Source: Tepidibacter sp.
GTDB taxonomy: Bacteria > Bacillota > Clostridia > Peptostreptococcales > Peptostreptococcaceae
Direction of reading: 5' to 3'
Assembly: GCF_025210165.1 (NCBI RefSeq)
Contig: NZ_JAOASI010000076.1
Location: forward strand, 1 to 64,000
Length of the DNA stretch: 64,000 bases
In this document: piece by piece, positions 247 to 41,807 of the stretch
Position numbering within the stretch: position 1 is the first letter of the stretch
How the letters are laid out: every line of letters starts with the position of its first letter
Notes under the pieces: model-generated
What the model was told of the DNA's origin: nothing
Databases searched by the model: none
Seen by the model: only the letters and a program-made list of their open reading frames with translations
Program-made: the position numbers and the translations under genes

Positions 247-837
247 GTGGAAATATATTTAAAACCTAAGAAGGATTTGAAGTTTGAGAAGAATATAAAG
301 GATTTGTATTTGAAGGATTTATTTTATATATATCCTTCACAAAATGAATATTTGGTCAAGGATATAATAGTTGATCATGTAAATGGAGTTAGTAAGGATT
401 ATGAGATTATAGAGCTTGGAGATATTATAAGCAGAATAAATAGTCAAAATAGCTATATTAAAGTTAATTTTTTGGAATTTGACGATTTATTAGTACATTT
501 TGAAAATCCCAAAAAAGATAATATGTTGTTTATAAGAGTTTTATTTGTCTGTGTGGTATTGTTTTTAGGATCTGGAATGGCAATAATTAATTTTCATTCA
601 GACGTAGATATGGCTACATCTCATAAGACAATACTCAGAGTATTAACAGGAAGTGAGACTAAGAACTTGTTATTGTTTCAAATAGCATATTCGCTAGGAA
701 TAGGATCGGGTGTTGCTGTATTTTACAATAAAATTATACCGAATTTCTCAAAGTCTGAACCAAGTCCACTAGAACTAGAAGTATCTACTTTTAAAAATGA
801 GGTACAATCTTATATCATTGAAAATAATAAGCAATAA
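247..837 (+). CDS. spoVAA: Stage V sporulation protein AA
   Basis: 196-residue membrane-associated protein, first gene of a five-gene spoVA operon. The N-terminal half (1-90) is a soluble domain, followed by two hydrophobic segments near residues 94-115 and 140-160. SpoVAA is part of the forespore inner-membrane complex that moves dipicolinic acid into the developing spore and out again at germination. The GTG start is chosen because GGGGGA lies 7 bases upstream. It is followed closely by spoVAB. Many Clostridia keep only spoVAC-AD-AE, so the presence of AA and AB is notable. Identification rests on sequence character plus operon position. Confidence 0.85.
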   Translation: MEIYLKPKKDLKFEKNIKDLYLKDLFYIYPSQNEYLVKDIIVDHVNGVSKDYEIIELGDIISRINSQNSYIKVNFLEFDDLLVHFENPKKDNMLFIRVLFVCVVLFLGSGMAIINFHSDVDMATSHKTILRVLTGSETKNLLLFQIAYSLGIGSGVAVFYNKIIPNFSKSEPSPLELEVSTFKNEVQSYIIENNKQ

Positions 838-847
838 GGAGGCAGGT

Positions 848-1258
848 TTGAAGCTAATATTTATAACTGTATTAGGATTTTCAGAAGGTGTAGTTGTTGG
901 ATCTGGTATAGTTGCTCTTCTTACTTTACTAGATATAATTCCAAGACTTTGTCAGATAACTAATACTTATGATTATTTAGGAAGATATGAGCACATGTTG
1001 ATATCAGGAGCTTTCTTTGGAGCTCTATTTTCACTCATAGACATATCTTTTAATTTTGGAATTGTATGTGTAATATTATTTGGGTGTATCTACGGAATTT
1101 TTATAGGAATGTTAGCATCTGCTCTTGCAGAAGCAGTAGATGTTATACCAGTTATGGAAAGAAGACTTAATATACAAGGAATGGTGAAATTTATAATAGT
1201 AGTTTTATTAATAGGTAAGATGACAGGTTCTATAATCAATTGGACAATATTAAAATAG
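848..1258 (+). CDS. spoVAB: Stage V sporulation protein AB
   Basis: 136-residue, almost wholly hydrophobic protein with four or five membrane segments, matching SpoVAB. The TTG at 848 is chosen as start because AAGGAGG (837-843) lies just before it; a further upstream ATG at 797 would overlap spoVAA by 41 bases and has no ribosome binding site. Its stop lies 10 bases before spoVAC. Role known from Bacillus: component of the SpoVA dipicolinate channel, made in the forespore. Confidence 0.85.
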   Translation: MKLIFITVLGFSEGVVVGSGIVALLTLLDIIPRLCQITNTYDYLGRYEHMLISGAFFGALFSLIDISFNFGIVCVILFGCIYGIFIGMLASALAEAVDVIPVMERRLNIQGMVKFIIVVLLIGKMTGSIINWTILK

Positions 1259-1268
1259 AGGTGGTTAA

Positions 1269-1697
1269 ATGGATTACAAAAAATACGTTGACGATAAAAG
1301 TCCTAAGCCTACATATGTTAAAAATTGTGTATGGGCATTTATTGTAGGCGGTCTGATATGTGATTTAGGTCAATTTATACTAAATAGTTATATAAAGTAT
1401 GGTCTTGATAAAAAAATGGCATCTACTGCAACATCTATAACTCTTATATTTTTAGGTGCATTTTTTACAGGTATAGGAGTATATGATTTACTTGGAAAAA
1501 GAGCTGGAGCAGGTTCGATTGTTCCTATAACTGGCTTTTCTAACGCTATAGTATCTCCAGCTATGGAGTATAAGAGGGAAGGGTATGTACTAGGTGTTGC
1601 AGGAAAAATGTTTACAATAGCAGGTCCTGTTCTTGTTTATGGAATAGGAAGCTCTGTAATACTTGGACTAATCTATTATTTCCTAGGTATTAGTTAG
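1269..1697 (+). CDS. spoVAC: Stage V sporulation protein AC
   Basis: 142-residue integral membrane protein. It has the SpoVAC/SpoVAEb family pattern: a first helix with AFIVGGLICDLGQ, a middle loop with GAGSIVPITGFSNA, and a last hydrophobic helix. SpoVAC of Bacillus is a mechanosensitive channel that releases dipicolinate during germination. Third gene of the operon, 10 bases after spoVAB and 13 before spoVAD. A paralogue lies at 38827-39306 in the second spoVA cluster. Confidence 0.95.
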   Translation: MDYKKYVDDKSPKPTYVKNCVWAFIVGGLICDLGQFILNSYIKYGLDKKMASTATSITLIFLGAFFTGIGVYDLLGKRAGAGSIVPITGFSNAIVSPAMEYKREGYVLGVAGKMFTIAGPVLVYGIGSSVILGLIYYFLGIS

Positions 1698-1710
1698 AAA
1701 GGAGGGTATT

Positions 1711-2721
1711 ATGGCAAAGAAAAGATTAGGAAATCAAACTGTGCAGTTATCAAATAACCCTGTTATAATTTCAACTGGATCTATAGTTGGACCAAAAGAA
1801 GGGAAGGGACCACTAAAGGATTATTTTGATATGATTTTAAAGGATGATTTATTTGGAGAAGATAGTTGGGAATTTGGTGAGAGTAAGATGATAACAGAAG
1901 TTATAAAAATGGCTGTAGGAAGAACTGATTATGTACTGAATCAGGTTGATTATATAGTAGCAGGAGATTTATTAAATCAACTTATGTCTACATCTTTTGC
2001 TGCAAGAGATTTAAAAAGACCATTCTTTGGCGTTTATGGAGCGTGTTCTACAATGTCAGAATCTATGAGTCTTGCTTCTATGATTGTAGATGGAGGCTTT
2101 TCTGATTTAGTAGTAGCTGGAACTTCAAGTCATTTTTGCACGGCAGAGAGGCAGTTTAGATTTCCTTTAGAACTTGGAAATCAAAGACCTATGACTGCTC
2201 AGTGGACAGTTACAGGAGCAGGAGCAAGTGTTATATCGTCAAAAGGAGAAGGGCCTAAGATAAAAAGAATAACTACTGGTAAGGTTATAGATAAGGGAAT
2301 AACTGACGTAAATAATATGGGACCAGCGATGGCTCCTGCAGCAGTAGATACAATAAAATCATACTTTGATGATACCAAAGATGATATAGATAGTTTTGAC
2401 ATAATAGCAACAGGTGATTTAGGAATAGTTGGAGGAGAAATTCTTCTAGACTTTATAAATAAAGAAGGTTATGACATATCTAGTGTATATATGGATTGTG
2501 GAATAGAAATATTTGACCATAAAAAACAAGACACTCATTCTGGTGGAAGTGGATGTGGATGTTCAGCTAGTGTGTTCAATGGATACATATACAAAAAACT
2601 AAAAAGTAAAGAAATAAATAAAGTTATGCTAGTATCAACAGGAGCACTAATGTCTCCTACGAGTACACTTCAAAAGCAAAGCATACCATCCATAGCTCAT
2701 GCAGTAATTATAGAAAATTAG
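1711..2721 (+). CDS. spoVAD: Stage V sporulation protein AD, dipicolinate-binding
   Basis: 336-residue soluble protein of the thiolase-like SpoVAD family. Visible family features are the GACSTMSES segment near residue 110, AQWTVTGAGAS near 165, and GGSGCGCSA near 280. SpoVAD binds dipicolinic acid directly and sits on the outer face of the spore inner membrane. A strong GAAAGGAGG precedes the ATG. It is followed by spoVAE after 11 bases. A second SpoVAD is encoded at 37822-38826, so the two can be compared directly. Confidence 0.95.
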   Translation: MAKKRLGNQTVQLSNNPVIISTGSIVGPKEGKGPLKDYFDMILKDDLFGEDSWEFGESKMITEVIKMAVGRTDYVLNQVDYIVAGDLLNQLMSTSFAARDLKRPFFGVYGACSTMSESMSLASMIVDGGFSDLVVAGTSSHFCTAERQFRFPLELGNQRPMTAQWTVTGAGASVISSKGEGPKIKRITTGKVIDKGITDVNNMGPAMAPAAVDTIKSYFDDTKDDIDSFDIIATGDLGIVGGEILLDFINKEGYDISSVYMDCGIEIFDHKKQDTHSGGSGCGCSASVFNGYIYKKLKSKEINKVMLVSTGALMSPTSTLQKQSIPSIAHAVIIEN

Positions 2722-2732
2722 GAGGTGGAATT

Positions 2733-3089
2733 GTGGAGTATTTAAGAGCTTTTATAGTTGGAGGAACTATATGTCTTATAGGTCAAATACTTATGGATTT
2801 TTTCAAAATGCCATCTCCATATGTACTTGTAAGCTTTGTAACTGTAGGAGTTATATTAACAGGTCTTGGAATATATGAACCAATTGTAAAGTTTGGAGGT
2901 GCTGGTGCAACTGTACCTCTTACAGGATTTGGATACGGACTTGGAAAAGGTGTTATAGAAGAGGTGGGTAAAGAAGGTTTGTTAGGTGTATTTATAGGAG
3001 GAACAGCTGCAAATGCAGGTGGGATAGCAGCTGCTGTATTATTTGGATACTTAATGCCTGTAATATTCACACCAAAAACAAAACCGTAA
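2733..3089 (+). CDS. spoVAE: Stage V sporulation protein AE (SpoVAEb type)
   Basis: 118-residue membrane protein of the SpoVAEb family, related to SpoVAC: AFIVGGTICLIGQ in the first helix and GAGATVPLTGFG in the central loop. The GTG start at 2733 follows TTAGGAGGTGG. Last gene of the spoVAA-AE operon; its stop lies 14 bases from the convergent end of the penicillin-binding protein gene. Acts with SpoVAC and SpoVAD in dipicolinate transport. Confidence 0.93.
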   Translation: MEYLRAFIVGGTICLIGQILMDFFKMPSPYVLVSFVTVGVILTGLGIYEPIVKFGGAGATVPLTGFGYGLGKGVIEEVGKEGLLGVFIGGTAANAGGIAAAVLFGYLMPVIFTPKTKP

Positions 3090-9871: not shown

Positions 9872-9966
9872 TATATATCATTAAAAATAGATGTGTATGG
9901 AATTATACTGTATAATATCTTATATAGGGATAGAATAAGTTATATTAGAGATTGGAGGGTGATCTT

Positions 9967-11577
9967 GTGAGTGAGAATAAGAGAAAAAAGCTTCCAATAG
10001 GTGAAGATAATTTTAAGAAATTAATAGAAGGTGGATATTATTTTGTTGATAAGAGTGAATTTATAATAGATATACTAAGAGAGGATAGTTCTGTTGTTTT
10101 AATAACTAGACCTAGAAGATTTGGTAAGACTTTAAATATAAGTATGTTGAAGTATTTTCTAGATATAAGTCAAGATTACAGATACTTATTTAAAGACTTA
10201 AAAATATCTAAAAGACAAACAAAAGATATAGAAGATATGAGAAATAATACACCTATAATATATTTAACTTTCAAAGATTGTAAATCAATTGATAAAGATG
10301 GTTTGATAAATAGTATTCAGAATGAAATAGTAAGGGAATGTACTAAATTATTTACATCAGAAGAAATAAAACTGTATGAATTAGATAAACTTATAAATAC
10401 AACAAAAGATTTAAAGTATGCAATAGTAAATATGAGTAAAGCTTTATATACAAAGTATAATAAAGAGGTAGTTGTATTAATAGATGAATATGATACACCT
10501 ATTCTAAGTGCATATGAATACGGATACTATAGAGATTTGTTACCTTTTTTCTCGGTGTTATATGGTTCGGGTTTAAAAGGAAATGAATATTTAAAGAGAG
10601 CTCTTTTAACAGGTATAAATAGAGTAGCCAAAAATAATATATTTTCTGGTTTAAATAATTTAACTGTATACACAGTAAATTCATCTAAGTTTTCAAATAG
10701 ATTTGGATTAGTAGAAAGAGAAGTAAAAAAATTATTTAAGCATTTTGGAATAGATTATTCTTTAGAGATTAAAAAGTATTATAACGGATATAAATTTGGA
10801 AGTAATAGAGTATTCAATCCTTGGTCAATATTAAGCTACATTCATAAATCAAGTTTAGATCCTTATTGGGTAAATACTGCTAACCCTGAAATATTAAAAG
10901 ATAAGATACTAAACTTGGGAGAAGATGCTATAGTTTTATTGAATGATGTTTTATTAAAAGACAGTGTATTAATTAATTATGATGTAGATAATATGATATT
11001 TGAAGAATCAAACTTAGACACTTTTATAGGGCTCATGGTCAATTCTGGATATTTAACTGTAGAACAAAAAATTTCTTATAATGAAGGTTATATTAAAATA
11101 CCAAATGAAGAAGTAAGAATAGCAATAAATAAATTATTAAATTCTTGCTTACTTTCAGATGGTAGAAGTACTATAACTAAAATGAGACAATCTTTAATAA
11201 ATCAGGATTTTGACATGTTTAATAAAATACTAGAAAAAATGTTAATAGATAACTTTAGTTATCATGATATGAAAGAATATGCCTATCATGTGTTTATGAA
11301 TACTCTTATGCTAAATATTACAGATATATATGCTCTACATTCAAATTTAGAAATGGGATTAGGTAGAAGTGATATTTATTTAAAACCTAAAATATCTGGA
11401 TTAAAACCTATAATATTTGAGCTTAAAAAGTCTAAGTATGATAAAGATTTACAAAGAGATGCTCAAGAAGGACTTAATCAAATAAGTAAGAAAAAGTACG
11501 ATTATGATATTAAGGATTGTGTTCATATAGGTATGGCTTTTTATGGTAAGACTGTATGCATGGCTAGAAAAGTTTAG
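9967..11577 (+). CDS. ATP-binding protein, AAA-ATPase-like plus PD-(D/E)XK nuclease domain (DUF1703 type)
   Basis: 536 residues. The N-terminal AAA-ATPase-like domain has LPIGEDNFKKL at the start, a P-loop-like TRPRRFGKT (near 50-58) and Walker B VVLIDEYDTP (near 170). The C-terminal domain has GRSDIYLKP followed by FELKKSK, fitting the D...ExK core of a PD-(D/E)XK nuclease. These proteins occur in many copies in clostridial and Bacteroides genomes. Their role is unproven; a defence or mobile-element function is often suspected. The GTG start at 9967 is placed 8 bases after GGAGGG. It stands alone in a region that also holds an Rpn remnant. Confidence 0.8.
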   Translation: MSENKRKKLPIGEDNFKKLIEGGYYFVDKSEFIIDILREDSSVVLITRPRRFGKTLNISMLKYFLDISQDYRYLFKDLKISKRQTKDIEDMRNNTPIIYLTFKDCKSIDKDGLINSIQNEIVRECTKLFTSEEIKLYELDKLINTTKDLKYAIVNMSKALYTKYNKEVVVLIDEYDTPILSAYEYGYYRDLLPFFSVLYGSGLKGNEYLKRALLTGINRVAKNNIFSGLNNLTVYTVNSSKFSNRFGLVEREVKKLFKHFGIDYSLEIKKYYNGYKFGSNRVFNPWSILSYIHKSSLDPYWVNTANPEILKDKILNLGEDAIVLLNDVLLKDSVLINYDVDNMIFEESNLDTFIGLMVNSGYLTVEQKISYNEGYIKIPNEEVRIAINKLLNSCLLSDGRSTITKMRQSLINQDFDMFNKILEKMLIDNFSYHDMKEYAYHVFMNTLMLNITDIYALHSNLEMGLGRSDIYLKPKISGLKPIIFELKKSKYDKDLQRDAQEGLNQISKKKYDYDIKDCVHIGMAFYGKTVCMARKV

Positions 11578-27820: not shown

Positions 27821-28972
27821 ATGCATAAAAGAATAGTAACTTTAATTTTAGCAGGAGTACTAATGCTTCCAACTAGTTCTTTTGCTATGGAGAATAATAA
27901 ACAAGGTTCAACTAATGGAAATGTTAATGTTAAGAAGGTAAGTGCTAGACAAGATACAAAAGAAAAAATGAAAAAAGAAATGCAAGAAAAGTTAAAATAC
28001 GAATATGAAATGAAAGATAGAATGAAAAAAGAAATGCAAGAAAAGTTAAAATATGAAAATGAAATGAAGGATAAAATGAAAATAGAAGTAAAGAATAGCC
28101 TTGAAAAAGAAATAAAAGAAAAAACTAAGCCTGAAATGATTAAAAAAGTAAGAGAAAGAATAAAAACAAGAGAAGAAGTAAAAAAAGAAATAAATGAAAA
28201 GATAAAAAAAGAAATGGTTGAAGAAATAAAAAAAGAAATGCAAGAAGAATTAAAGAAAGAAATAAAACAAGAGTTAAGAGAAGAGGAAAAAGAAGCAATT
28301 AAAGAAAAAATAAGAAAAAAAATGATTCAAAAAATGAAAGAAGATATGAGAAAAAAGCTAAAACAAGAAGTAAAAAAAGAGAGAAGAGAACAAATAAAAG
28401 CTTTAAAAGAAGCAGCTAAAGAAGCTTATGATAAAGAAGAACTTATTAAAATAGAGGAAAGAATTAAGACATTAAAAGAAGAATACCCAAATATGAGAGT
28501 TTTACCTGTACAAAATATAATTTCAAAGAAAATGAATTTTAAATTTGATACTCCACCAGTTGTTAAGGAAGGAAGAACTCTACTTCCAGTAAGAGGTATA
28601 GCTGAGGGATTAAAAGCTGATATTTCATGGGATGGAGAAACCAATGAAGTTACTATAACAAAAGATGGTAAGAATATAGTATTAAAAATAGATAGTAATG
28701 TAGCTATAGTAGATGGAAAAGAAGTTGAACTTGACTCAAAAGCTGAAATAATGAATGGAAGAACTGTTATTCCAGTAAGATTTGTAGCTGAAAATTTAGG
28801 TCTTAAAGTTAAATGGGATTCAGAAGAAGAATCAATTGAGATAGAAGAAGAAGGATCTGAAACTATAGATGAGACTATTACTGAAGAAGATATTGAAAAA
28901 GAATTAGAAACAGAAATAGAAACTGAAGTAGAAAGTGAAGAAGTAGAGAATAATGAAGTAGAAGCAAATTAA
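27821..28972 (+). CDS. Secreted charged-helix protein with copper-amine-oxidase N-type domain
   Basis: 383 residues. A signal peptide (1-22, MLPTSSFA cleavage region) is followed by a very long Lys/Glu-rich segment (about 45-200) built of units like MKKEMQEKLKYE, predicted to be one continuous charged helix or coiled coil. Residues about 215-350 form a Cu_amine_oxidN1-type domain in two halves (GRTLLPVRGIAEGL and GRTVIPVRFVAENLG), a cell-surface fold common in clostridia that is not catalytic by itself. The tail is Glu/Thr-rich and acidic. Likely an exported surface or wall-associated structural protein; function unknown. Confidence 0.75.
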   Translation: MHKRIVTLILAGVLMLPTSSFAMENNKQGSTNGNVNVKKVSARQDTKEKMKKEMQEKLKYEYEMKDRMKKEMQEKLKYENEMKDKMKIEVKNSLEKEIKEKTKPEMIKKVRERIKTREEVKKEINEKIKKEMVEEIKKEMQEELKKEIKQELREEEKEAIKEKIRKKMIQKMKEDMRKKLKQEVKKERREQIKALKEAAKEAYDKEELIKIEERIKTLKEEYPNMRVLPVQNIISKKMNFKFDTPPVVKEGRTLLPVRGIAEGLKADISWDGETNEVTITKDGKNIVLKIDSNVAIVDGKEVELDSKAEIMNGRTVIPVRFVAENLGLKVKWDSEEESIEIEEEGSETIDETITEEDIEKELETEIETEVESEEVENNEVEAN

Positions 28973-29019
28973 TAAGTAAGTTACATTGACAAGAGTGTAA
29001 ATATAAAAATATTAAAGAG

Positions 29020-29066
29020 ATACCCTATAAGAGTAGATAATAAAAAAGCTTACTCTTATAGGGTAT
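29020..29066. terminator. Terminator after the charged-helix protein gene
   Basis: Perfect 16-base stem ATACCCTATAAGAGTA / TACTCTTATAGGGTAT with a short T run after it. Confidence 0.85.
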
Positions 29067-29127
29067 TTTGTATATAATTAAATAATAGATAGTATTAGCA
29101 AGAGGATAAATATGGAGGAATTAAATT

Positions 29128-29763
29128 ATGGGAATTTTAAATCGTTTAAATACTATTATAAAAGCGAAGGCTAATAGCTTAATTTCAAAAGCTGAAGACC
29201 CAGAGAAAATGCTTAATCAACTGATTATTGATATGACTGATCAATATAATAAAGCAAAGACGCAAGTTGCATCATCGATAGTTTATGAAAAGAAAATAAA
29301 GAAAGAATTACAAGAACAAGAAGCTAAATGTGAACAATGGGAAAAAAAAGTAAAAGTAGCTGTACAAAGAGGGGATGATGAAATTGCAATTCAAGCTCTT
29401 ATTCGAAAGAAAGAATGCGAGAAATTAGCTAAAAAATACAGAAATCAATGGGAATTGCGAAAAAGTGAGATTGATAAAATTAAAGCTAGCTTAAGAGAAT
29501 TAAGTAATAAAATTGAAGAAATAAAAGATAAAAAAAATCTTTTAGCGGCTAGGATGGAAAGAGCAGAAGCACAAAAGCTTATACAAGAAACAATATCAAG
29601 TCTAAATGATAATAGTGTATGCTATATGTTTAATAATATTAATCATAAAGCCGACATAGCTGAAAGTAAAGCTATGGCTCAAGCAGATCTTAATGAAATA
29701 AAGGAGAAGGATAAGAAAATAATAGATGAATTGGAAGATTTGAAGAAAAAATTAGATACATAA
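29128..29763 (+). CDS. PspA/IM30-family envelope stress protein
   Basis: 211-residue, almost entirely helical protein with the PspA/Vipp1 pattern: amphipathic N-terminal helix (MGILNRLNTIIKAKANSLIS) then long coiled coils, with DPEKMLNQLI near residue 26. PspA binds stressed membranes and forms ESCRT-III-like assemblies. It faces, on the other strand, an aminopropyltransferase-DUF350-DUF4247-DUF4178 unit that is often found near pspA, so it probably works with it. GGAGGA ribosome binding site. Confidence 0.88.
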   Translation: MGILNRLNTIIKAKANSLISKAEDPEKMLNQLIIDMTDQYNKAKTQVASSIVYEKKIKKELQEQEAKCEQWEKKVKVAVQRGDDEIAIQALIRKKECEKLAKKYRNQWELRKSEIDKIKASLRELSNKIEEIKDKKNLLAARMERAEAQKLIQETISSLNDNSVCYMFNNINHKADIAESKAMAQADLNEIKEKDKKIIDELEDLKKKLDT

Positions 29764-37104: not shown

Positions 37105-37136
37105 AAAACCACATTTCAAAATCGAAATGTGGTTTT
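37105..37136 (-). terminator. Terminator of the second spoVA operon
   Basis: AAAACCACATTTC / GAAATGTGGTTTT, directly after the last DUF1657 gene on the minus strand. Confidence 0.9.
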
Positions 37137-37141
37137 CATTG

Positions 37142-37351
37142 TTATTGTTCTTCTCTATATTGAGGTTCTTCATTTTTTACATATTCAACTCTGCCTTCAA
37201 GTTGTTGTACCATATCTTCAGCAGTTTGTGATAGCTGATTAAACATTTGTTTTGCATTTTGATCATCAGTATCAAGTGCAAAAGTTTTAAATTGTGATGC
37301 TAAACCTTTAGTTCCTGCTAATGCTTGTTCTAATTTATTTATTGTACTCAT
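37142..37351 (-). CDS. DUF1657 protein (distal copy)
   Basis: 69-residue helical protein of the DUF1657 family (KLEQALAGTKGLASQFKTFAL at the start, EGRVEYVKNEEPQYREE at the end). DUF1657 proteins occur in spoVA2-type operons of spore-formers. Last gene of the operon, 101 bases after spoVAEb, with a strong AAAGGAGG site. Confidence 0.88.
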   Translation of the reverse strand: MSTINKLEQALAGTKGLASQFKTFALDTDDQNAKQMFNQLSQTAEDMVQQLEGRVEYVKNEEPQYREEQ

Positions 37352-37452
37352 TAAAAAGCCTCCTTTTTTATTTCATTATTAATTAGTGTTTCCTTTTTTT
37401 AAAAAATATATAGCAATAATAAAAAGTTAGTTATAGAATATTTGTCCATTTA

Positions 37453-37806
37453 TTAACCTTTAGGCTTAAATATTAATGATGCCATAAATCCGAAAATTAT
37501 TGCACAAGAAATTCCTGCACTAGTAACTTCAAAAATTCCTGTGAGAACACCTATTACACCCGTTCGCTTTGCTTCTGCTAAAGCGCCTTTAACCAAGGCA
37601 TTTCCAAAACTTGTTATTGGAACAGAAGCACCTGCTCCTGCAAATTTTATTAAAGGCTCATACCAACCAAGTCCTCCAAGGATTGCTCCTATTACAACTA
37701 GCGTACTTGTTGTATGAGCAGGAGTAAGTTTAAATACATCAATCATAATTTGTCCAATAACACATATTGATCCACCTACTAAAAATGCCCAAATGAACTT
37801 TTCCAA
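37453..37806 (-). CDS. spoVAE: Stage V sporulation protein AEb (second copy)
   Basis: 117-residue membrane protein with AFLVGGSICVIGQIMID and GAGASVPITSFGNA, the SpoVAEb pattern. TTG start at 37806 after AAAAGGAGG. Follows spoVAD after 15 bases. Paralogue of 2733-3089. Confidence 0.92.
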   Translation of the reverse strand: MEKFIWAFLVGGSICVIGQIMIDVFKLTPAHTTSTLVVIGAILGGLGWYEPLIKFAGAGASVPITSFGNALVKGALAEAKRTGVIGVLTGIFEVTSAGISCAIIFGFMASLIFKPKG

Positions 37807-37821
37807 TATTTAAACCTCCTT

Positions 37822-38826
37822 TTAAGTCATTTCTATAGATACTGCATGAGCTATACAAGGTATACTTTCTTTTTGTTGGTACGAAATAGGAGACAATAAA
37901 GCACCTGTTGCTATAATTAATATTCTTTTTAATTCACCTTTTTTCATACGATTAAGAAAGTGTCCATAAGTTACAGTAGCACAACAGCCACATCCACTAC
38001 CACCTGCCATAACAGGTTGATCTTCTTTATATATCATTCTTCCGCAATCTGTAAAAATTTTAGGTGGGATTTTTAGCCCATGTTTAATTAATAGATCTCC
38101 TGCAATTGTATGTCCTATTTTTCCAAGGTCTCCAGTAGCGATAATATCATAATAAGATGGATCAATATTTAAATCTCTAAAATGAGCTTGAATTGTATCA
38201 ACTGCTGCAGGTGCCATTGCTCCTCCCATATTAAATGGATCAGAAAGTCCCATATCTACAACTCTTCCAATAGTAGCTGATGTAACGCGTGGACCTTTAC
38301 CTTTATTTGACAATAAACCTGTTCCAGCTCCAGTTACGGTCCATTGAGCTGTTGGAGGTTTTTGAGAACCATACTCTGTTGGATATCTAAATTGTTTTTC
38401 TGCTGAGGCGTTATGACTAGATGCACCTGCTAAAACATAGTTTGCAGCTTTACAATCAATCAACAAGCTACCTAAAGCAAGTCCCTCAATAGCACTAGAA
38501 CAAGCCCCGAATATACCCAGAAATGGTGCTCCTAGAGTACGAGCAGTAAAAGAACTTGAAATAATCTGATTCATTAAGTCGCCACTTATAAAAAATTGAA
38601 TATCTTCTTTTTTTAATCCTGATTTTTGAATTGTCTTTTCACAAGATTGTTCTAACAGTTTTTTTTCTGCTTTTTCATAACTGTCTTGTCCTAACCATAT
38701 ATTGTCATGAAGAATATCAAAATCCTCAGCTAAATTACCCTGTGCTTCAAAAGGACCGCCAACAGCAGAAGAAGAAATTATAACAGGTTTTGAATCAAAT
38801 ACCCATGACTGATGTCCTTTTAACAT
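37822..38826 (-). CDS. spoVAD: Stage V sporulation protein AD (second copy)
   Basis: 334-residue thiolase-like dipicolinate-binding protein: GACSSAIEGLALG near 110, AQWTVTGAGTG near 162 and GGSGCGCCA near 278. Shares the family frame of the copy at 1711-2721 but differs at many positions, so the two arose by old duplication or transfer, not by recent copying. It starts one base after the end of spoVAC. Confidence 0.95.
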   Translation of the reverse strand: MLKGHQSWVFDSKPVIISSSAVGGPFEAQGNLAEDFDILHDNIWLGQDSYEKAEKKLLEQSCEKTIQKSGLKKEDIQFFISGDLMNQIISSSFTARTLGAPFLGIFGACSSAIEGLALGSLLIDCKAANYVLAGASSHNASAEKQFRYPTEYGSQKPPTAQWTVTGAGTGLLSNKGKGPRVTSATIGRVVDMGLSDPFNMGGAMAPAAVDTIQAHFRDLNIDPSYYDIIATGDLGKIGHTIAGDLLIKHGLKIPPKIFTDCGRMIYKEDQPVMAGGSGCGCCATVTYGHFLNRMKKGELKRILIIATGALLSPISYQQKESIPCIAHAVSIEMT

Positions 38827-39306
38827 TTACATCCCACCTAACCATTTAATAGTAATTTTAATAAGAGCAACTACAAATGCTGAAAAAACCCCATAAACAA
38901 TTACTGAACCTGATAATTTAAACATATTTCCGCCTACGCCTAAAACATATCCTTCACTACGATGTTCAATAGCAGCAGAAGCCATAGTATTAGCAAAACC
39001 TGTAATAGGAATAATAGTACCACCACCAGCCCATTGAGCAATATGATCATATACACCAAATCCAGTAAGCAAAACTGAAACTATAATTAAAACTGCTGTT
39101 GCTGGATCTCCTGCTGTTTTTTCTGTAAAATTGAAGTAGTTGACAAATATCCATTGTAGCCCTTGACCTATAGTACAAATAAATCCACCAACAATGAATG
39201 CTCTAAAACAATTGCGAAAAACTTTTCTCTTTGGTTCTCTAGCTTTTGCAAAATCTTGATATTCTTGTTGGATAGGAGTTAGTTTTTTCTTTTTTTTATT
39301 AGACAT
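38827..39306 (-). CDS. spoVAC: Stage V sporulation protein AC (second copy)
   Basis: 159 residues, longer at the N-terminus than the copy at 1269-1697: a Lys-rich soluble stretch (1-30) precedes AFIVGGFICTIGQ. The loop AGGGTIIPITGFANT is conserved. Channel-type component for dipicolinate. Follows the 2Duf gene after 14 bases. Confidence 0.94.
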   Translation of the reverse strand: MSNKKKKKLTPIQQEYQDFAKAREPKRKVFRNCFRAFIVGGFICTIGQGLQWIFVNYFNFTEKTAGDPATAVLIIVSVLLTGFGVYDHIAQWAGGGTIIPITGFANTMASAAIEHRSEGYVLGVGGNMFKLSGSVIVYGVFSAFVVALIKITIKWLGGM

Positions 39307-39320
39307 TTAATCATCACCCT

Positions 39321-40181
39321 CTAATGTAATAAATAAGGTTCTAGTTTTTTTACAATACTTTGAAGTTTTTGTGCATCATTTGAATACATATCTTTTGTTT
39401 TTGGGTTTTGTGTTTCTAATGCGAAACTAAGAAGGTCAGCTTGAGTTTTTTCAAGGTTAGCATAAATCAATTCTTTTACTTGGGGCTTAGGAATTTGTAT
39501 AGAGTCCTCAAAAAGATCTACATATAAATCACCAGAAGAATCAACCTGACCAATAAAAACATTATCTAGAGATACACCTAGACTTTCTAATTGTGTATTT
39601 AACCACCCGTGGTTTAAGCCTCTATTACTTAGAGCTTCATCAATTATATTTCCATCTAAGATTACTGTTTGAGATTCAGTTTGTGGTGATACTTGTTTGC
39701 CTAAATCATGAGGTGTAATCGGGGTTTTGTATGATTTTAGCAACATATTAATTTCACCAGTTGTTTCCATTAGAGCAAATTCAACATCCATTAAATTAAA
39801 TACATTTTTAGATCTTAATTCTCTTAATAGCTCTTCTCCTGTGAATCTTACTTGACTTAAATTTTCTTCCATAACTTTTCCGTTTTTTATTAAAATTGTC
39901 TCTTTTCCATACACCCAATCGTGAATTAATTTGCTTGATAAACATAGATAATCTAACCCTATGGTAAATAAAAGCCAAACCCCTAGAGCAACAAAACCAA
40001 ATGCTAAATTGTTAATTATATTTGTTGAAATTAAAGCAACTAAAATTGCAATTACAGTATAACTAACAAAATTAAACGATGTCATTCTAGCTAATTGCCT
40101 TTTTCCAATGATTCTGATAAAAAGTAAAGTTAAAAAAAATAAACCTACTGATCTAATTAATATTTCAATCCAAGTTTTCAT
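39321..40181 (-). CDS. 2Duf-type protein: DUF421 membrane domain plus DUF1657-like tail
   Basis: 286 residues. The N-terminus has three membrane helices with FIRIIGKRQLARMTSFNFV, the YetF/DUF421 signature, then a cytoplasmic DUF421 domain (about 85-225). Residues about 240-285 (EKTQADLLSFALETQN ... KLEPYL) resemble DUF1657, giving the two-domain architecture of 2Duf, reported to raise spore wet-heat resistance in Bacillus strains with spoVA2mob. Second gene of the operon. Confidence 0.85.
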   Translation of the reverse strand: MKTWIEILIRSVGLFFLTLLFIRIIGKRQLARMTSFNFVSYTVIAILVALISTNIINNLAFGFVALGVWLLFTIGLDYLCLSSKLIHDWVYGKETILIKNGKVMEENLSQVRFTGEELLRELRSKNVFNLMDVEFALMETTGEINMLLKSYKTPITPHDLGKQVSPQTESQTVILDGNIIDEALSNRGLNHGWLNTQLESLGVSLDNVFIGQVDSSGDLYVDLFEDSIQIPKPQVKELIYANLEKTQADLLSFALETQNPKTKDMYSNDAQKLQSIVKKLEPYLLH

Positions 40182-40192
40182 AATTACCTCAC

Positions 40193-40399
40193 CTAATAAC
40201 CTTTGTATTGTGGTTCCTCAAATTCTAAAACTTTTATCCTTTCTTCTAAGTCATTAATTATTTCATTGGTTATATTCAAAGCTTCTTTATATATTTCTTT
40301 TGTTTTTTTATCTTGAGATTGTATTGAATATAATCTTAAAGTACTTTGAGTACCTTTTAAACTAGCTAAAGTTTGCTTTACTTTAGCGCCAACAGACAT
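40193..40399 (-). CDS. DUF1657 protein (proximal copy)
   Basis: 68 residues: KVKQTLASLKGTQSTLRLY and EERIKVLEFEEPQYKG match DUF1657 closely. The ATG at 40399 is preferred over 40408 because AAAGGA lies 9 bases before it. First gene of the second spoVA operon. Divergent from the DUF421 gene at 40576, with 176 bases between. Confidence 0.88.
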   Translation of the reverse strand: MSVGAKVKQTLASLKGTQSTLRLYSIQSQDKKTKEIYKEALNITNEIINDLEERIKVLEFEEPQYKGY

Positions 40400-40575
40400 T
40401 AATATCATCCTTTCTAATGTAAATTACTTTATATCTATTTTTTGCAATTATTCATTATTAATACATATATATATAATTTTAATATATTGAAATAATTTCC
40501 ATATGATGCTTTTCAAAAAATGAATACATTAATTTTTATAAGTATATAATACAAAATAGGATTGAGGTGAAATTA

Positions 40576-41274
40576 TTGAATATATCATATATGCTTAACT
40601 CAACAATTGAACTAATCATTGGTTTTTTTGCATTACTTATAATTACTAAAGTTTTAGGAAAAACTCAAATAAATCAAATTACTCCCTTTGAATTTATATC
40701 TTCACTAGTATTGGGGGAGTTAGTAGGTAATGCCGTTTATGATAAAGATATTAATACCTTTTATATTTTATATACAGTTTTCTTATGGGCTTTATTGTTA
40801 TATATAATTGAAATGTTGACAGAAAAATTTAAAATAACAAGAAGTTTTTTCGAAGGAAAACCTTCTATTTTAATTAGAAATGGGCAAATTGATTTTAATG
40901 AATTAAAAAAAGAAAAGATAGATATAAATGAATTACAAAGTTTATTAAGGTCAAAAGATACATTTTCCATTCGGGAAATTCAATATGCTATTTTAGAAAG
41001 CAATGGCTCAATTAGTATTCTAAAAAAATCCAAATATAATAATCCTACAAATGAAGATTTAAAATTACAGGAAAAACCTGTATATTTACCGATTACTTTT
41101 ATACTAGATGGAGAAATTTTATGGGATAATATCAAAGCTTGTGGATTTGATGAAAAATGGCTAAAAAAACAGCTTCATGAGAACAAAATAAATAAAATAA
41201 AAGAAGTTATTTATGCTGAATGGAAGAAAGATGAAGGGCTTCATATAATACAAAAAAATGATAATAGTGAATAA
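40576..41274 (+). CDS. YetF/DUF421 membrane protein
   Basis: 232 residues with three membrane helices (about 5-75, KVLGKTQINQITPFEF) and a cytoplasmic DUF421 domain (RNGQIDFNELKKEKID ... FILDGEILWDN). Unlike the gene at 39321-40181 it has no DUF1657-like tail. TTG at 40576 follows GAGGTGA; the GTG at 40567 overlaps that site. Divergent from the second spoVA operon and probably functionally linked to it. Confidence 0.85.
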   Translation: MNISYMLNSTIELIIGFFALLIITKVLGKTQINQITPFEFISSLVLGELVGNAVYDKDINTFYILYTVFLWALLLYIIEMLTEKFKITRSFFEGKPSILIRNGQIDFNELKKEKIDINELQSLLRSKDTFSIREIQYAILESNGSISILKKSKYNNPTNEDLKLQEKPVYLPITFILDGEILWDNIKACGFDEKWLKKQLHENKINKIKEVIYAEWKKDEGLHIIQKNDNSE

Positions 41275-41381
41275 ATAAAAGATTTTTAAAACATGGTAAA
41301 AAAAGATTTTTTAAAATTTATAAATAAAACTTCTAAAAAAAGAAAAACTAATATTGATTAAAAAAAGAGGAGGTTTTAATT

Positions 41382-41807
41382 TTGAAAGTAAGAGATATAA
41401 TGACAAGTGATGTATCATATGTAACAGTAAATGCAGATATAACACAAGTAGCAGATATTATGAAATCTTTAGATGTTGGAATAGTTCCTGTTTGTGATGA
41501 AAATAAAAATCCTATTGGAGTAATAACAGATAGAGATATAGTTTTAAGAAGTATTTCTGACAATAATCCTAATCAACATGTGGGAAATATAATGAGTAGA
41601 GACATTATAAGTGTAAATTCTGATACTGATGCTCATGAAGCAGCAGCACTAATGGCACAGAATCAGATAAGAAGATTACCTGTAATTGAAAATAACAAGA
41701 TTGTTGGAATTCTGTCATTAGGTGATTTAGCAAATGTAAATATACATGTTAATGAAGCTGGTGAAACTTTAAGCTCAATTTCAAAACCAGGTAGTGGAAT
41801 GAAATAA
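41382..41807 (+). CDS. Tandem CBS-domain protein
   Basis: 141 residues with two CBS motifs (MKVRDIMTSDV ... GVITDRDIV, then VGNIMSRDII ... IVGILSLGDLA). CBS pairs bind adenine nucleotides or SAM and act as energy or redox sensors. No catalytic domain is attached. TTG start at 41382 with AGGAGG upstream. Terminator follows at 41827. Confidence 0.9.
   Translation: MKVRDIMTSDVSYVTVNADITQVADIMKSLDVGIVPVCDENKNPIGVITDRDIVLRSISDNNPNQHVGNIMSRDIISVNSDTDAHEAAALMAQNQIRRLPVIENNKIVGILSLGDLANVNIHVNEAGETLSSISKPGSGMK

What the first reader, a model, noticed from the sequence alone, without database searches (positions are those of the whole stretch)
37142..41807. A spoVA2mob-like operon in a Clostridium-type genome, beside a second full spoVA operon
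The minus-strand order DUF1657, 2Duf (DUF421+DUF1657), spoVAC, spoVAD, spoVAEb, DUF1657 closely resembles the spoVA2mob operon known from highly heat-resistant Bacillus spores, but the YhcN/YlaJ-type lipoprotein gene of that operon is absent and 2Duf is placed upstream rather than last. A separate five-gene spoVAA-AE operon lies 35 kb away. A lone DUF421 gene and a CBS-pair sensor flank it. The cell thus has two dipicolinate channel systems, one with the heat-resistance module.
Basis: partly seen in the sequence, partly recalled or inferred. Interest (0 to 1): 0.75.

Follow-up and report, generated by a model that had tools for sequence, protein, structure and literature searches.

The report
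Second, capless spore dipicolinate channel operon
Beside its ordinary spore-channel genes, this Tepidibacter-like genome carries a second, anciently distinct set in the usual clostridial form of an operon tied to heat-resistant spores; it lacks the gene for the channel's outer cap, yet would likely still load dipicolinic acid into spores.

Summary
On the minus strand at 37142-40408 lie DUF1657, 2Duf (DUF421+DUF1657), SpoVAC, SpoVAD, SpoVAEb and DUF1657; a spoVAA-AB-AC-AD-AEb operon lies at 247-3089. The genome is close to Tepidibacter mesophilus. The two SpoVADs sit on opposite sides of the deepest split of a midpoint-rooted 95-row tree, so they are old paralogues, not recent copies. The order DUF1657-2Duf-C-D-Eb is not peculiar: 31 of 34 loci of the window's branch have it, and it is in print for Clostridium sporogenes (PMC5376575). 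What I add: this branch lacks NJ2, the lipoprotein cap of the Bacillus SpoVA2 complex (PMC13059800). A cap profile hits 12 of 12 capped genomes at 102.7-188 bits; in 24 of 24 capless genomes it finds at most 46.4 bits, here nothing. One SpoVAC position, residue 56, separates the two groups completely (exploratory). In 24 of 41 sampled genomes with a SpoVA2-type SpoVAD there is no other SpoVAC/D/Eb set. Likely function: DPA importer plus inner-membrane protection by 2Duf; heat resistance is untested. A new member of a known kind, with one testable mechanistic question.

The parts
40193..40408 (-). DUF1657 gene, first gene of the operon (a start at 40399 fits the ribosome-binding site better; my reading of the sequence)
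   Evidence: PF07870 6.8e-19; first gene in 31 of 34 loci of the branch
39321..40181 (-). 2Duf: three predicted N-terminal helices, DUF421/YetF domain, DUF1657 two-helix tail
   Evidence: PF04239 1.7e-34 and PF07870 1.5e-17; match to solved YetF 3c6f 6.2e-10; model helices 3-25, 35-52, 59-82, 235-256, 260-285, mean pLDDT 66.6
38827..39306 (-). SpoVAC (SpoVA2 type), predicted channel subunit
   Evidence: TIGR02838 201 bits, cut-off 164
37822..38826 (-). SpoVAD (SpoVA2 type), predicted cytoplasmic plug
   Evidence: PF07451 4.3e-159; NF009069 616 bits, cut-off 442; solved relatives 3lma, 3lm6; tree
37453..37806 (-). SpoVAEb (SpoVA2 type), predicted channel subunit
   Evidence: TIGR02839 164 bits, cut-off 131
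37142..37351 (-). DUF1657 gene, last gene of the operon
   Evidence: PF07870 5.4e-17; a DUF1657 gene follows Eb in 20 of 31 loci of this order
37105..37136 (.). Terminator-like hairpin just after the operon, found on both strands
   Evidence: 14-pair stem on the minus strand, 13 on the plus strand
40409..40566 (.). Intergenic region shared with the divergent DUF421 gene; conserved blocks in six Tepidibacter-type loci; no canonical sigma-G site found
40567..41274 (+). Lone DUF421 (YetF-like) gene, divergent neighbour
   Evidence: PF04239 1e-40, PF20730 5.9e-22; a 62-90% identical gene at the same place in Tepidibacter and Anaeromonas loci
41382..41807 (+). CBS-pair protein; at this place only within the genus among the loci read; likely not part of the system
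   Evidence: PF00571 4.6e-30
247..3089 (+). First (SpoVA1-type) operon spoVAA-AB-AC-AD-AEb

Best explanation
The six minus-strand genes at 37142-40408 are a SpoVA2-type operon (DUF1657, 2Duf, SpoVAC, SpoVAD, SpoVAEb, DUF1657) that is predicted to build a second dipicolinic-acid (DPA) channel in the spore inner membrane, one without the NJ2 cap subunit, together with the membrane protein 2Duf, which likely protects that membrane against wet heat. Shown here: gene content, order, the old split between the two SpoVA sets, and that no cap gene was found in the genome. Inferred from Bacillus work: SpoVAC and SpoVAEb form the pore, SpoVAD plugs it from the core side, the set imports DPA during sporulation and can release it in germination (PMC13059800), and DUF421 proteins make the inner membrane less permeable (PMC10126465). 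My own inference: since many relatives have only a SpoVA2-type set, this one is the main DPA importer here and the SpoVA1 set a second route; without a cap the pore likely relies on the SpoVAD plug, as is thought for SpoVA1. The role of the two free DUF1657 proteins is unknown; that they associate with the DUF1657 tail of 2Duf is a guess.
For: Profile matches for every gene. SpoVAD tree: the window's two SpoVADs fall on the two sides of the deepest split (100/97) with Bacilli on both sides. Same order in 31 of 34 loci of the branch. Of 41 of 299 sampled genomes with a SpoVA2-type SpoVAD, 24 have no other SpoVAD, and those 24 of 24 have exactly two SpoVAC/AEb matches; 10 of the 24 carry a whole 2Duf-C-D-Eb operon, 5 of them capless like this one. 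Cap profile: 12 of 12 capped genomes at 102.7-188 bits (3 of the 12 not used to build the profile, 102.7-130.2), 24 of 24 capless genomes at 46.4 bits or less, nothing in this genome. Published: SpoVA2 is the critical DPA importer in B. anthracis, and the core C/D/Eb complex keeps partial transport without NJ2 (PMC13059800).
Against: No expression, DPA or heat data for any Tepidibacter. In B. subtilis the Bacillus SpoVA2 complex does not work without NJ2 (PMC13059800), so a capless SpoVA2 may need a replacement. No canonical sigma-G site was found before the operon, so forespore expression is not shown. No spoVFA-type DPA synthase subunit was found in the genome; DPA would have to come by another route, such as the EtfA route named for C. 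perfringens in PMC5376575. On 2Duf the published record is mixed: PMC10126465 cites raised, not lowered, membrane fluidity when 2Duf is present and says it is not clear that 2Duf alone gives heat resistance, while PMC12548441 (abstract) reports raised fluidity when YetF-type proteins are lost. All function is carried over from Bacilli across a deep split.
Confidence: 0.7

Rival explanations
2. The operon is a recently acquired mobile heat-resistance element like spoVA2mob on Tn1546.
For: Patchy in the family: 7 of 60 genomes have a true 2Duf at 380 bits or more. One family member's operon (L160) groups with Clostridium tagluense and Clostridium sp. CS001 (100/98 and 100/99), which points to horizontal transfer there. 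A B. velezensis copy lies beside a Tn3-family transposase. The outer flanks are not shared with T. mesophilus or T. formicigenes in the stretches read.
Against: Present in 4 of 4 genomes of the genus; one relative (L156) keeps the SDR and GGDEF-EAL genes on the two sides, another (L155) the GGDEF-EAL gene. The SpoVAD branch is apart from the Bacillus mobile copies. None of 26 neighbouring ORFs scanned between 23934 and 52308 is a transposase.
Confidence: 0.08
3. The operon is redundant: the SpoVA1 set does the DPA work and this set is a relic or condition-specific spare.
For: Of 257 sampled genomes with a SpoVAD match, 216 have none of SpoVA2 type by my cut, so most species manage without it.
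Against: All six reading frames are open, and 2Duf, SpoVAC, SpoVAD and the last DUF1657 are 75-95% identical in T. mesophilus or T. formicigenes; 24 sampled genomes have a SpoVA2-type set alone; in B. anthracis the SpoVA2 set is the critical importer (PMC13059800).
Confidence: 0.12

Closest known systems
spoVA2 operon of Clostridium sporogenes PA 3679 (PMC5376575, passages read)
   Same: Five genes: DUF1657 protein, DUF421+DUF1657 membrane protein, spoVAC, spoVAD, spoVAEb; present in addition to a native spoVA; no YhcN/YlaJ gene among the five
   Different: Window operon has a further DUF1657 gene at the end, a divergent DUF421 neighbour, and lies in Tepidibacter. I did not fetch the C. sporogenes sequence.
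spoVA2 locus of the Bacillus cereus group (PMC13059800: abstract, sections 9-11 and 13, passages)
   Same: Separate SpoVAC/D/Eb set, more distant from the classical spoVA; genome has two sets
   Different: Window branch lacks the NJ2 cap gene and has 2Duf second instead of last (position of 2Duf there from PMC10126465, section 15)
spoVA2mob on Tn1546 in Bacillus (PMC5133452, passages read; B. velezensis plasmid copy L161)
   Same: DUF1657, 2Duf, SpoVAC, SpoVAD, SpoVAEb, DUF1657 all present
   Different: spoVA2mob has NJ2 between DUF1657 and spoVAC, 2Duf last, and a Tn3-family transposase nearby; none of that here
Classical spoVA (SpoVA1) operon, here at 247-3089
   Same: SpoVAC, SpoVAD, SpoVAEb core
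   Different: Has SpoVAA and SpoVAB, no 2Duf or DUF1657; SpoVAD on the other side of the tree's deepest split
YetF of B. subtilis (PDB 3C6F; PMC10126465: abstract, sections 14, 15, 17)
   Same: DUF421 domain with N-terminal membrane helices
   Different: 2Duf adds a DUF1657 tail and is 286 aa

Membership tests
SpoVA2-type operon | SpoVAC, SpoVAD, SpoVAEb adjacent and co-directional | tested here: met
SpoVA2-type operon | SpoVAD falls with SpoVA2, not SpoVA1, in a tree | tested here: met
   100/97 split; NF009069 best model
SpoVA2-type operon | 2Duf (DUF421+DUF1657) and DUF1657 genes linked | tested here: met
   27 of 40 other sampled SpoVA2 loci have linked 2Duf
SpoVA2-type operon | Imports DPA during sporulation | not testable with these tools
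   no experiment
spoVA2mob (Tn1546 form) | YhcN/YlaJ (NJ2) gene between DUF1657 and spoVAC | tested here: not met
   not in the operon; no NJ2-profile match in the genome
spoVA2mob (Tn1546 form) | 2Duf as last gene | tested here: not met
   second gene
spoVA2mob (Tn1546 form) | On a Tn3-type transposon | tested here: not met
   no transposase among 26 neighbouring ORFs scanned between 23934 and 52308; ORFs further out and small antisense ORFs were not scanned
spoVA2mob (Tn1546 form) | Raises spore wet-heat resistance | not testable with these tools
   no experiment
2Duf | DUF421 and DUF1657 domains in one protein | tested here: met
   YetF match; helical tail in model
2Duf | Located in the spore inner membrane | not testable with these tools
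   three N-terminal helices in the model only
Sigma-G regulon | Sigma-G promoter before the first gene | tested here: inconclusive
   none in the window by my pattern, which is recalled and comes from no call; 8 of 65 SpoVA2 loci have one against 30 of 1300 mononucleotide shuffles

The most novel reading that the evidence does not exclude
SpoVA2 channels come in two mechanical classes, capped and capless: the clostridial branch holding this operon gave up the NJ2 cap along with its docking residue on SpoVAC (aromatic residue 56), and 2Duf, the most changed protein of the branch, became its gating or sealing partner.
Probability: 0.18. Interest if true: 0.65.

Novelty: new member of a known kind. 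Interest (0 to 1): 0.4.

Why it matters
How DPA is pushed into the spore core is open, and the current model for SpoVA2 uses a cap and a plug (PMC13059800). A clostridial branch has SpoVA2 with no cap gene beside it; in five sampled genomes of that branch a capless 2Duf operon is the only DPA-channel set, and no NJ2-level match was found elsewhere in those five. This suggests that nature can do without the cap and gives a comparison to test what the cap does. It also warns that a 'spoVA2mob-like' operon in a clostridium does not by itself predict extra heat-resistant spores.

Tried and rejected
Rejected: recent duplication of the two SpoVA sets. Rejected: that the published bypass position of SpoVAEb (PMC13059800) explains life without a cap. 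The equivalent window residue S66 is serine in 41 of 41 capless SpoVA2 operons and in 22 of 23 capped ones; the one exception is the B. velezensis mobile copy, which has a cap. The match of positions rests on 116-aa Bacilli SpoVAEb rows in which this residue is number 65; I did not fetch the protein studied in the paper. Rejected: that one of the genome's two YhcN/YlaJ proteins is the missing cap: the cap profile does not hit them. Their 13 and 17% identity to the first NJ2 row is by itself no proof, since one true NJ2 row has 19%.

Led nowhere: a canonical sigma-G promoter before the operon; sigma-70-like sites in the region are at the shuffled level (33 against 31.6). The AlphaFold2 models are of middling confidence (2Duf pLDDT 66.6, pTM 0.31; SpoVAC 68.6, pTM 0.48), so I ran no fold search. 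A complex could not be modelled with these tools.

Weak points: the residue-56 result comes from an exploratory scan of four proteins. A yardstick speaks for caution: 5 of 159 SpoVAC columns and 2 of 117 SpoVAEb columns also separate capped Bacilli from capped clostridia completely, so one separating column is not remarkable as such; what is suggestive is its place and that SpoVA1 sets lack the aromatic too. It rests on few events (4 label changes on the tree). The capless branch has 98/98 support in the larger tree (34 rows) and 86/98 in the smaller one, where a long-branch row joins it (35 rows). The nine 'deep' capless loci were grouped by hand; two of them (L026, L059) lie among the Bacilli rows of the tree. 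The 420-bit cut between SpoVA1 and SpoVA2 is mine; two rows below it (L143, L144) fall on the SpoVA2 side on long branches. The trees are rooted at the midpoint. The lone-DUF421 linkage (8 of 27 loci within 4.5 kb) has no computed chance level. Loci within a genus or family are not independent.


Full report
Observation. The tail of 39321-40181 is DUF1657 (1.5e-17), so that refutation test does not refute. The genes are tightly packed up to SpoVAEb; a gap of about 100 bases precedes the last DUF1657 gene, and a strong hairpin follows it at 37105-37136. The other operon at 247-3089 has spoVAA-AB-AC-AD-AEb. The genome (3.0 Mb, 97.93% complete) has four SpoVAC/AEb matches in all, so two sets.

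Two old SpoVA lineages. In a midpoint-rooted tree of 95 SpoVADs the window's SpoVA1 copy lies among 31 rows and its SpoVA2 copy among 64, parted by a branch of 100/97 support. Bacilli lie on both sides: a Metabacillus SpoVAA-AB operon on the first, Bacilli 2Duf operons on the second. The split is thus likely older than the Bacilli-Clostridia divergence, or was spread by old transfer; it is not a duplication inside the genus.

How common it is. In 299 sampled genomes of the phylum, 257 have a SpoVAD match and 41 have a SpoVA2-type one by my cut of 420 bits (the lowest counted score is 422.6, the next below it 386.1). Of the 41, 17 also have another SpoVAD match, and 17 of 17 have 2Duf beside the SpoVA2 set; 24 have no other SpoVAD, and 11 of those 24 have 2Duf beside it. 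The 24 sole genomes have exactly two SpoVAC/AEb matches each (24 of 24), so for them this is the whole channel set; ten carry a complete 2Duf-C-D-Eb operon (five of them with a cap gene, five without) and one (G178) has SpoVAC and SpoVAEb on another contig. In the family, 7 of 60 genomes have a true 2Duf (380 bits or more), among them 4 of 4 of the genus.

Gene orders. Across 66 SpoVA2 loci three layouts make up 54. Five Bacilli loci (L024, L025, L161, L162, L164): DUF1657-NJ2-C-D-Eb-DUF1657-2Duf. One clostridial branch (15 loci, 99/85) has NJ2 after Eb; in ten of the 15, one or two DUF1657 genes and 2Duf come first, and in the other five no 2Duf was seen in the stretch. The window's branch (34 loci): DUF1657-2Duf-C-D-Eb in 31, with a further DUF1657 after Eb in 20 of those 31, and C-D-Eb alone in 3. 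PMC10126465 also says that clostridia have different arrangements of 2duf near the three spoVA genes (section 15).

The cap. PMC13059800 (abstract, sections 9-11 and 13 and passages read) reports that the YhcN/YlaJ-type lipoprotein NJ2 is a fourth subunit of the Bacillus SpoVA2 complex, predicted to cap the pore from outside, important for DPA import in the native host and essential when the set works in B. subtilis. A profile of 16 NJ2 proteins hits 12 of 12 capped genomes at 102.7-188 bits; 9 of the 12 gave rows to the profile, and the 3 that did not score 102.7-130.2. In 24 of 24 capless genomes nothing exceeds 46.4 bits: 6 of the 24 have weak matches of 20.2-46.4 bits, the level of second matches in capped clostridial genomes (up to 41.7), which are likely other YhcN-family proteins, and 18 have none, this genome among them. 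The genome's two YhcN/YlaJ-family proteins are thus not NJ2-like.

What changed with the cap. I compared residues of capped and capless operons (exploratory). Columns that separate the capless branch from the capped loci completely: SpoVAD 0 of 334, SpoVAC 1 of 159, SpoVAEb 2 of 117, 2Duf 9 of 286. As a yardstick, capped Bacilli and capped clostridia are separated by 10, 5, 2 and 60 columns, so such columns are not rare. The SpoVAC column is residue 56, aromatic (F/W/Y) in 20 of 21 capped loci with a SpoVAC, 0 of 34 of the capless branch, 1 of 7 other capless loci (L026, a Bacilli locus that has also lost SpoVAEb from its place) and 1 of 33 SpoVA1 sets. The SpoVAC model puts it at the end of the first long helix (29-57), away from the N-terminus, which PMC13059800 places on the core side; so it would face the side where the cap sits. 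This is a lead, with few independent events behind it. The published SpoVAEb bypass position is not how these operons live without a cap (41 of 41 keep serine).

2Duf and neighbours. 2Duf matches the solved YetF structure (3c6f, 6.2e-10); its model has three N-terminal helices and a confident two-helix tail. A divergent DUF421 gene sits beside the operon in Tepidibacter and Anaeromonas loci, and 8 of 27 anonymous loci with 2Duf have some lone DUF421 within 4.5 kb (chance level not computed). The CBS-pair gene is at this place only within the genus among the loci I read.

Mobility. The operon itself can move: L160, from another genus of the same family, groups with Clostridium tagluense and Clostridium sp. 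CS001 (100/98 and 100/99). I see no sign of recent arrival in the window: the genus has it in 4 of 4 genomes, some flanking genes are shared with two relatives though not with T. mesophilus or T. formicigenes, and none of 26 neighbouring ORFs scanned is a transposase.

Likely working. Carried over from Bacillus: SpoVAC and SpoVAEb form the pore, SpoVAD plugs it, DPA goes in during sporulation and out in germination, and 2Duf protects the inner membrane. These steps are inferred, and the published record on how 2Duf acts is mixed. No DPA synthase subunit of the spoVFA type was found in the genome, so its DPA would come by another route. Forespore expression is not shown.

Literature search. Searches for spoVA2mob, DUF1657 with Clostridium (11), 2Duf (43), second spoVA operons (44), Tepidibacter with spoVA (45: no paper), SpoVA2 with YhcN and Clostridi (80) and spoVAC/spoVAD/DUF421/Clostridia (81) showed no paper, in the listings or passages I read, that describes the clostridial SpoVA2 branch as capless or ties SpoVAC residue 56 to the cap. 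The library holds open-licence papers only; I read passages or sections of few of the papers listed, and the ISME J 2016 paper on spoVA2mob was not held.

Verdict. A true, well-formed member of a known kind of operon. The part worth following is the natural split into capped and capless SpoVA2 channels.

Noticed in passing
L027 6001-6860: The 2Duf gene of Clostridium tagluense A121 is split into two reading frames while the other operon genes were called whole.
   Followed up: no
G020:C1:3132276-3132416; G202:C1:654834-654971: DUF1657 matches in 2Duf-sized frames (297 and 293 aa) far from the SpoVA2-type SpoVAD of these genomes, so 2Duf may not always be linked to spoVA as PMC10126465 states. 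DUF421 content was not tested.
   Followed up: no
L059 4892-7299: SpoVAD of SpoVA2 type lies between two DUF1657 genes, with 2Duf after them, but SpoVAC and SpoVAEb are on another contig of that genome.
   Followed up: partly
L026 4051-6852: Domibacillus enclensis operon reads DUF1657-C-D-DUF1657-2Duf, with neither SpoVAEb nor NJ2 in place.
   Followed up: partly
L048 5521-7014: SpoVAD was called in a 497-aa frame with no separate SpoVAC beside it; possibly SpoVAC and SpoVAD in one frame.
   Followed up: no
L163 6003-9173: A Paenibacillus urinalis plasmid carries 2Duf-C-D-E in clostridial order without NJ2 beside it, in a Bacilli host.
   Followed up: partly
G000 (whole genome): No spoVFA-type dipicolinate synthase subunit A was found although two SpoVA sets are present.
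   Followed up: no
plasmid CP079755.1: A record named Klebsiella grimontii plasmid holds spoVA genes at 66.5% identity; Klebsiella makes no spores, so likely a mislabelled or mixed assembly.
   Followed up: no
window 9952-11577: AAA-ATPase-like plus PDDEXK_9 nuclease-type protein of unknown role.
   Followed up: no
window 27821-29763: A copper-amine-oxidase-N-terminal-domain protein beside a PspA/IM30 membrane-stress protein.
   Followed up: no
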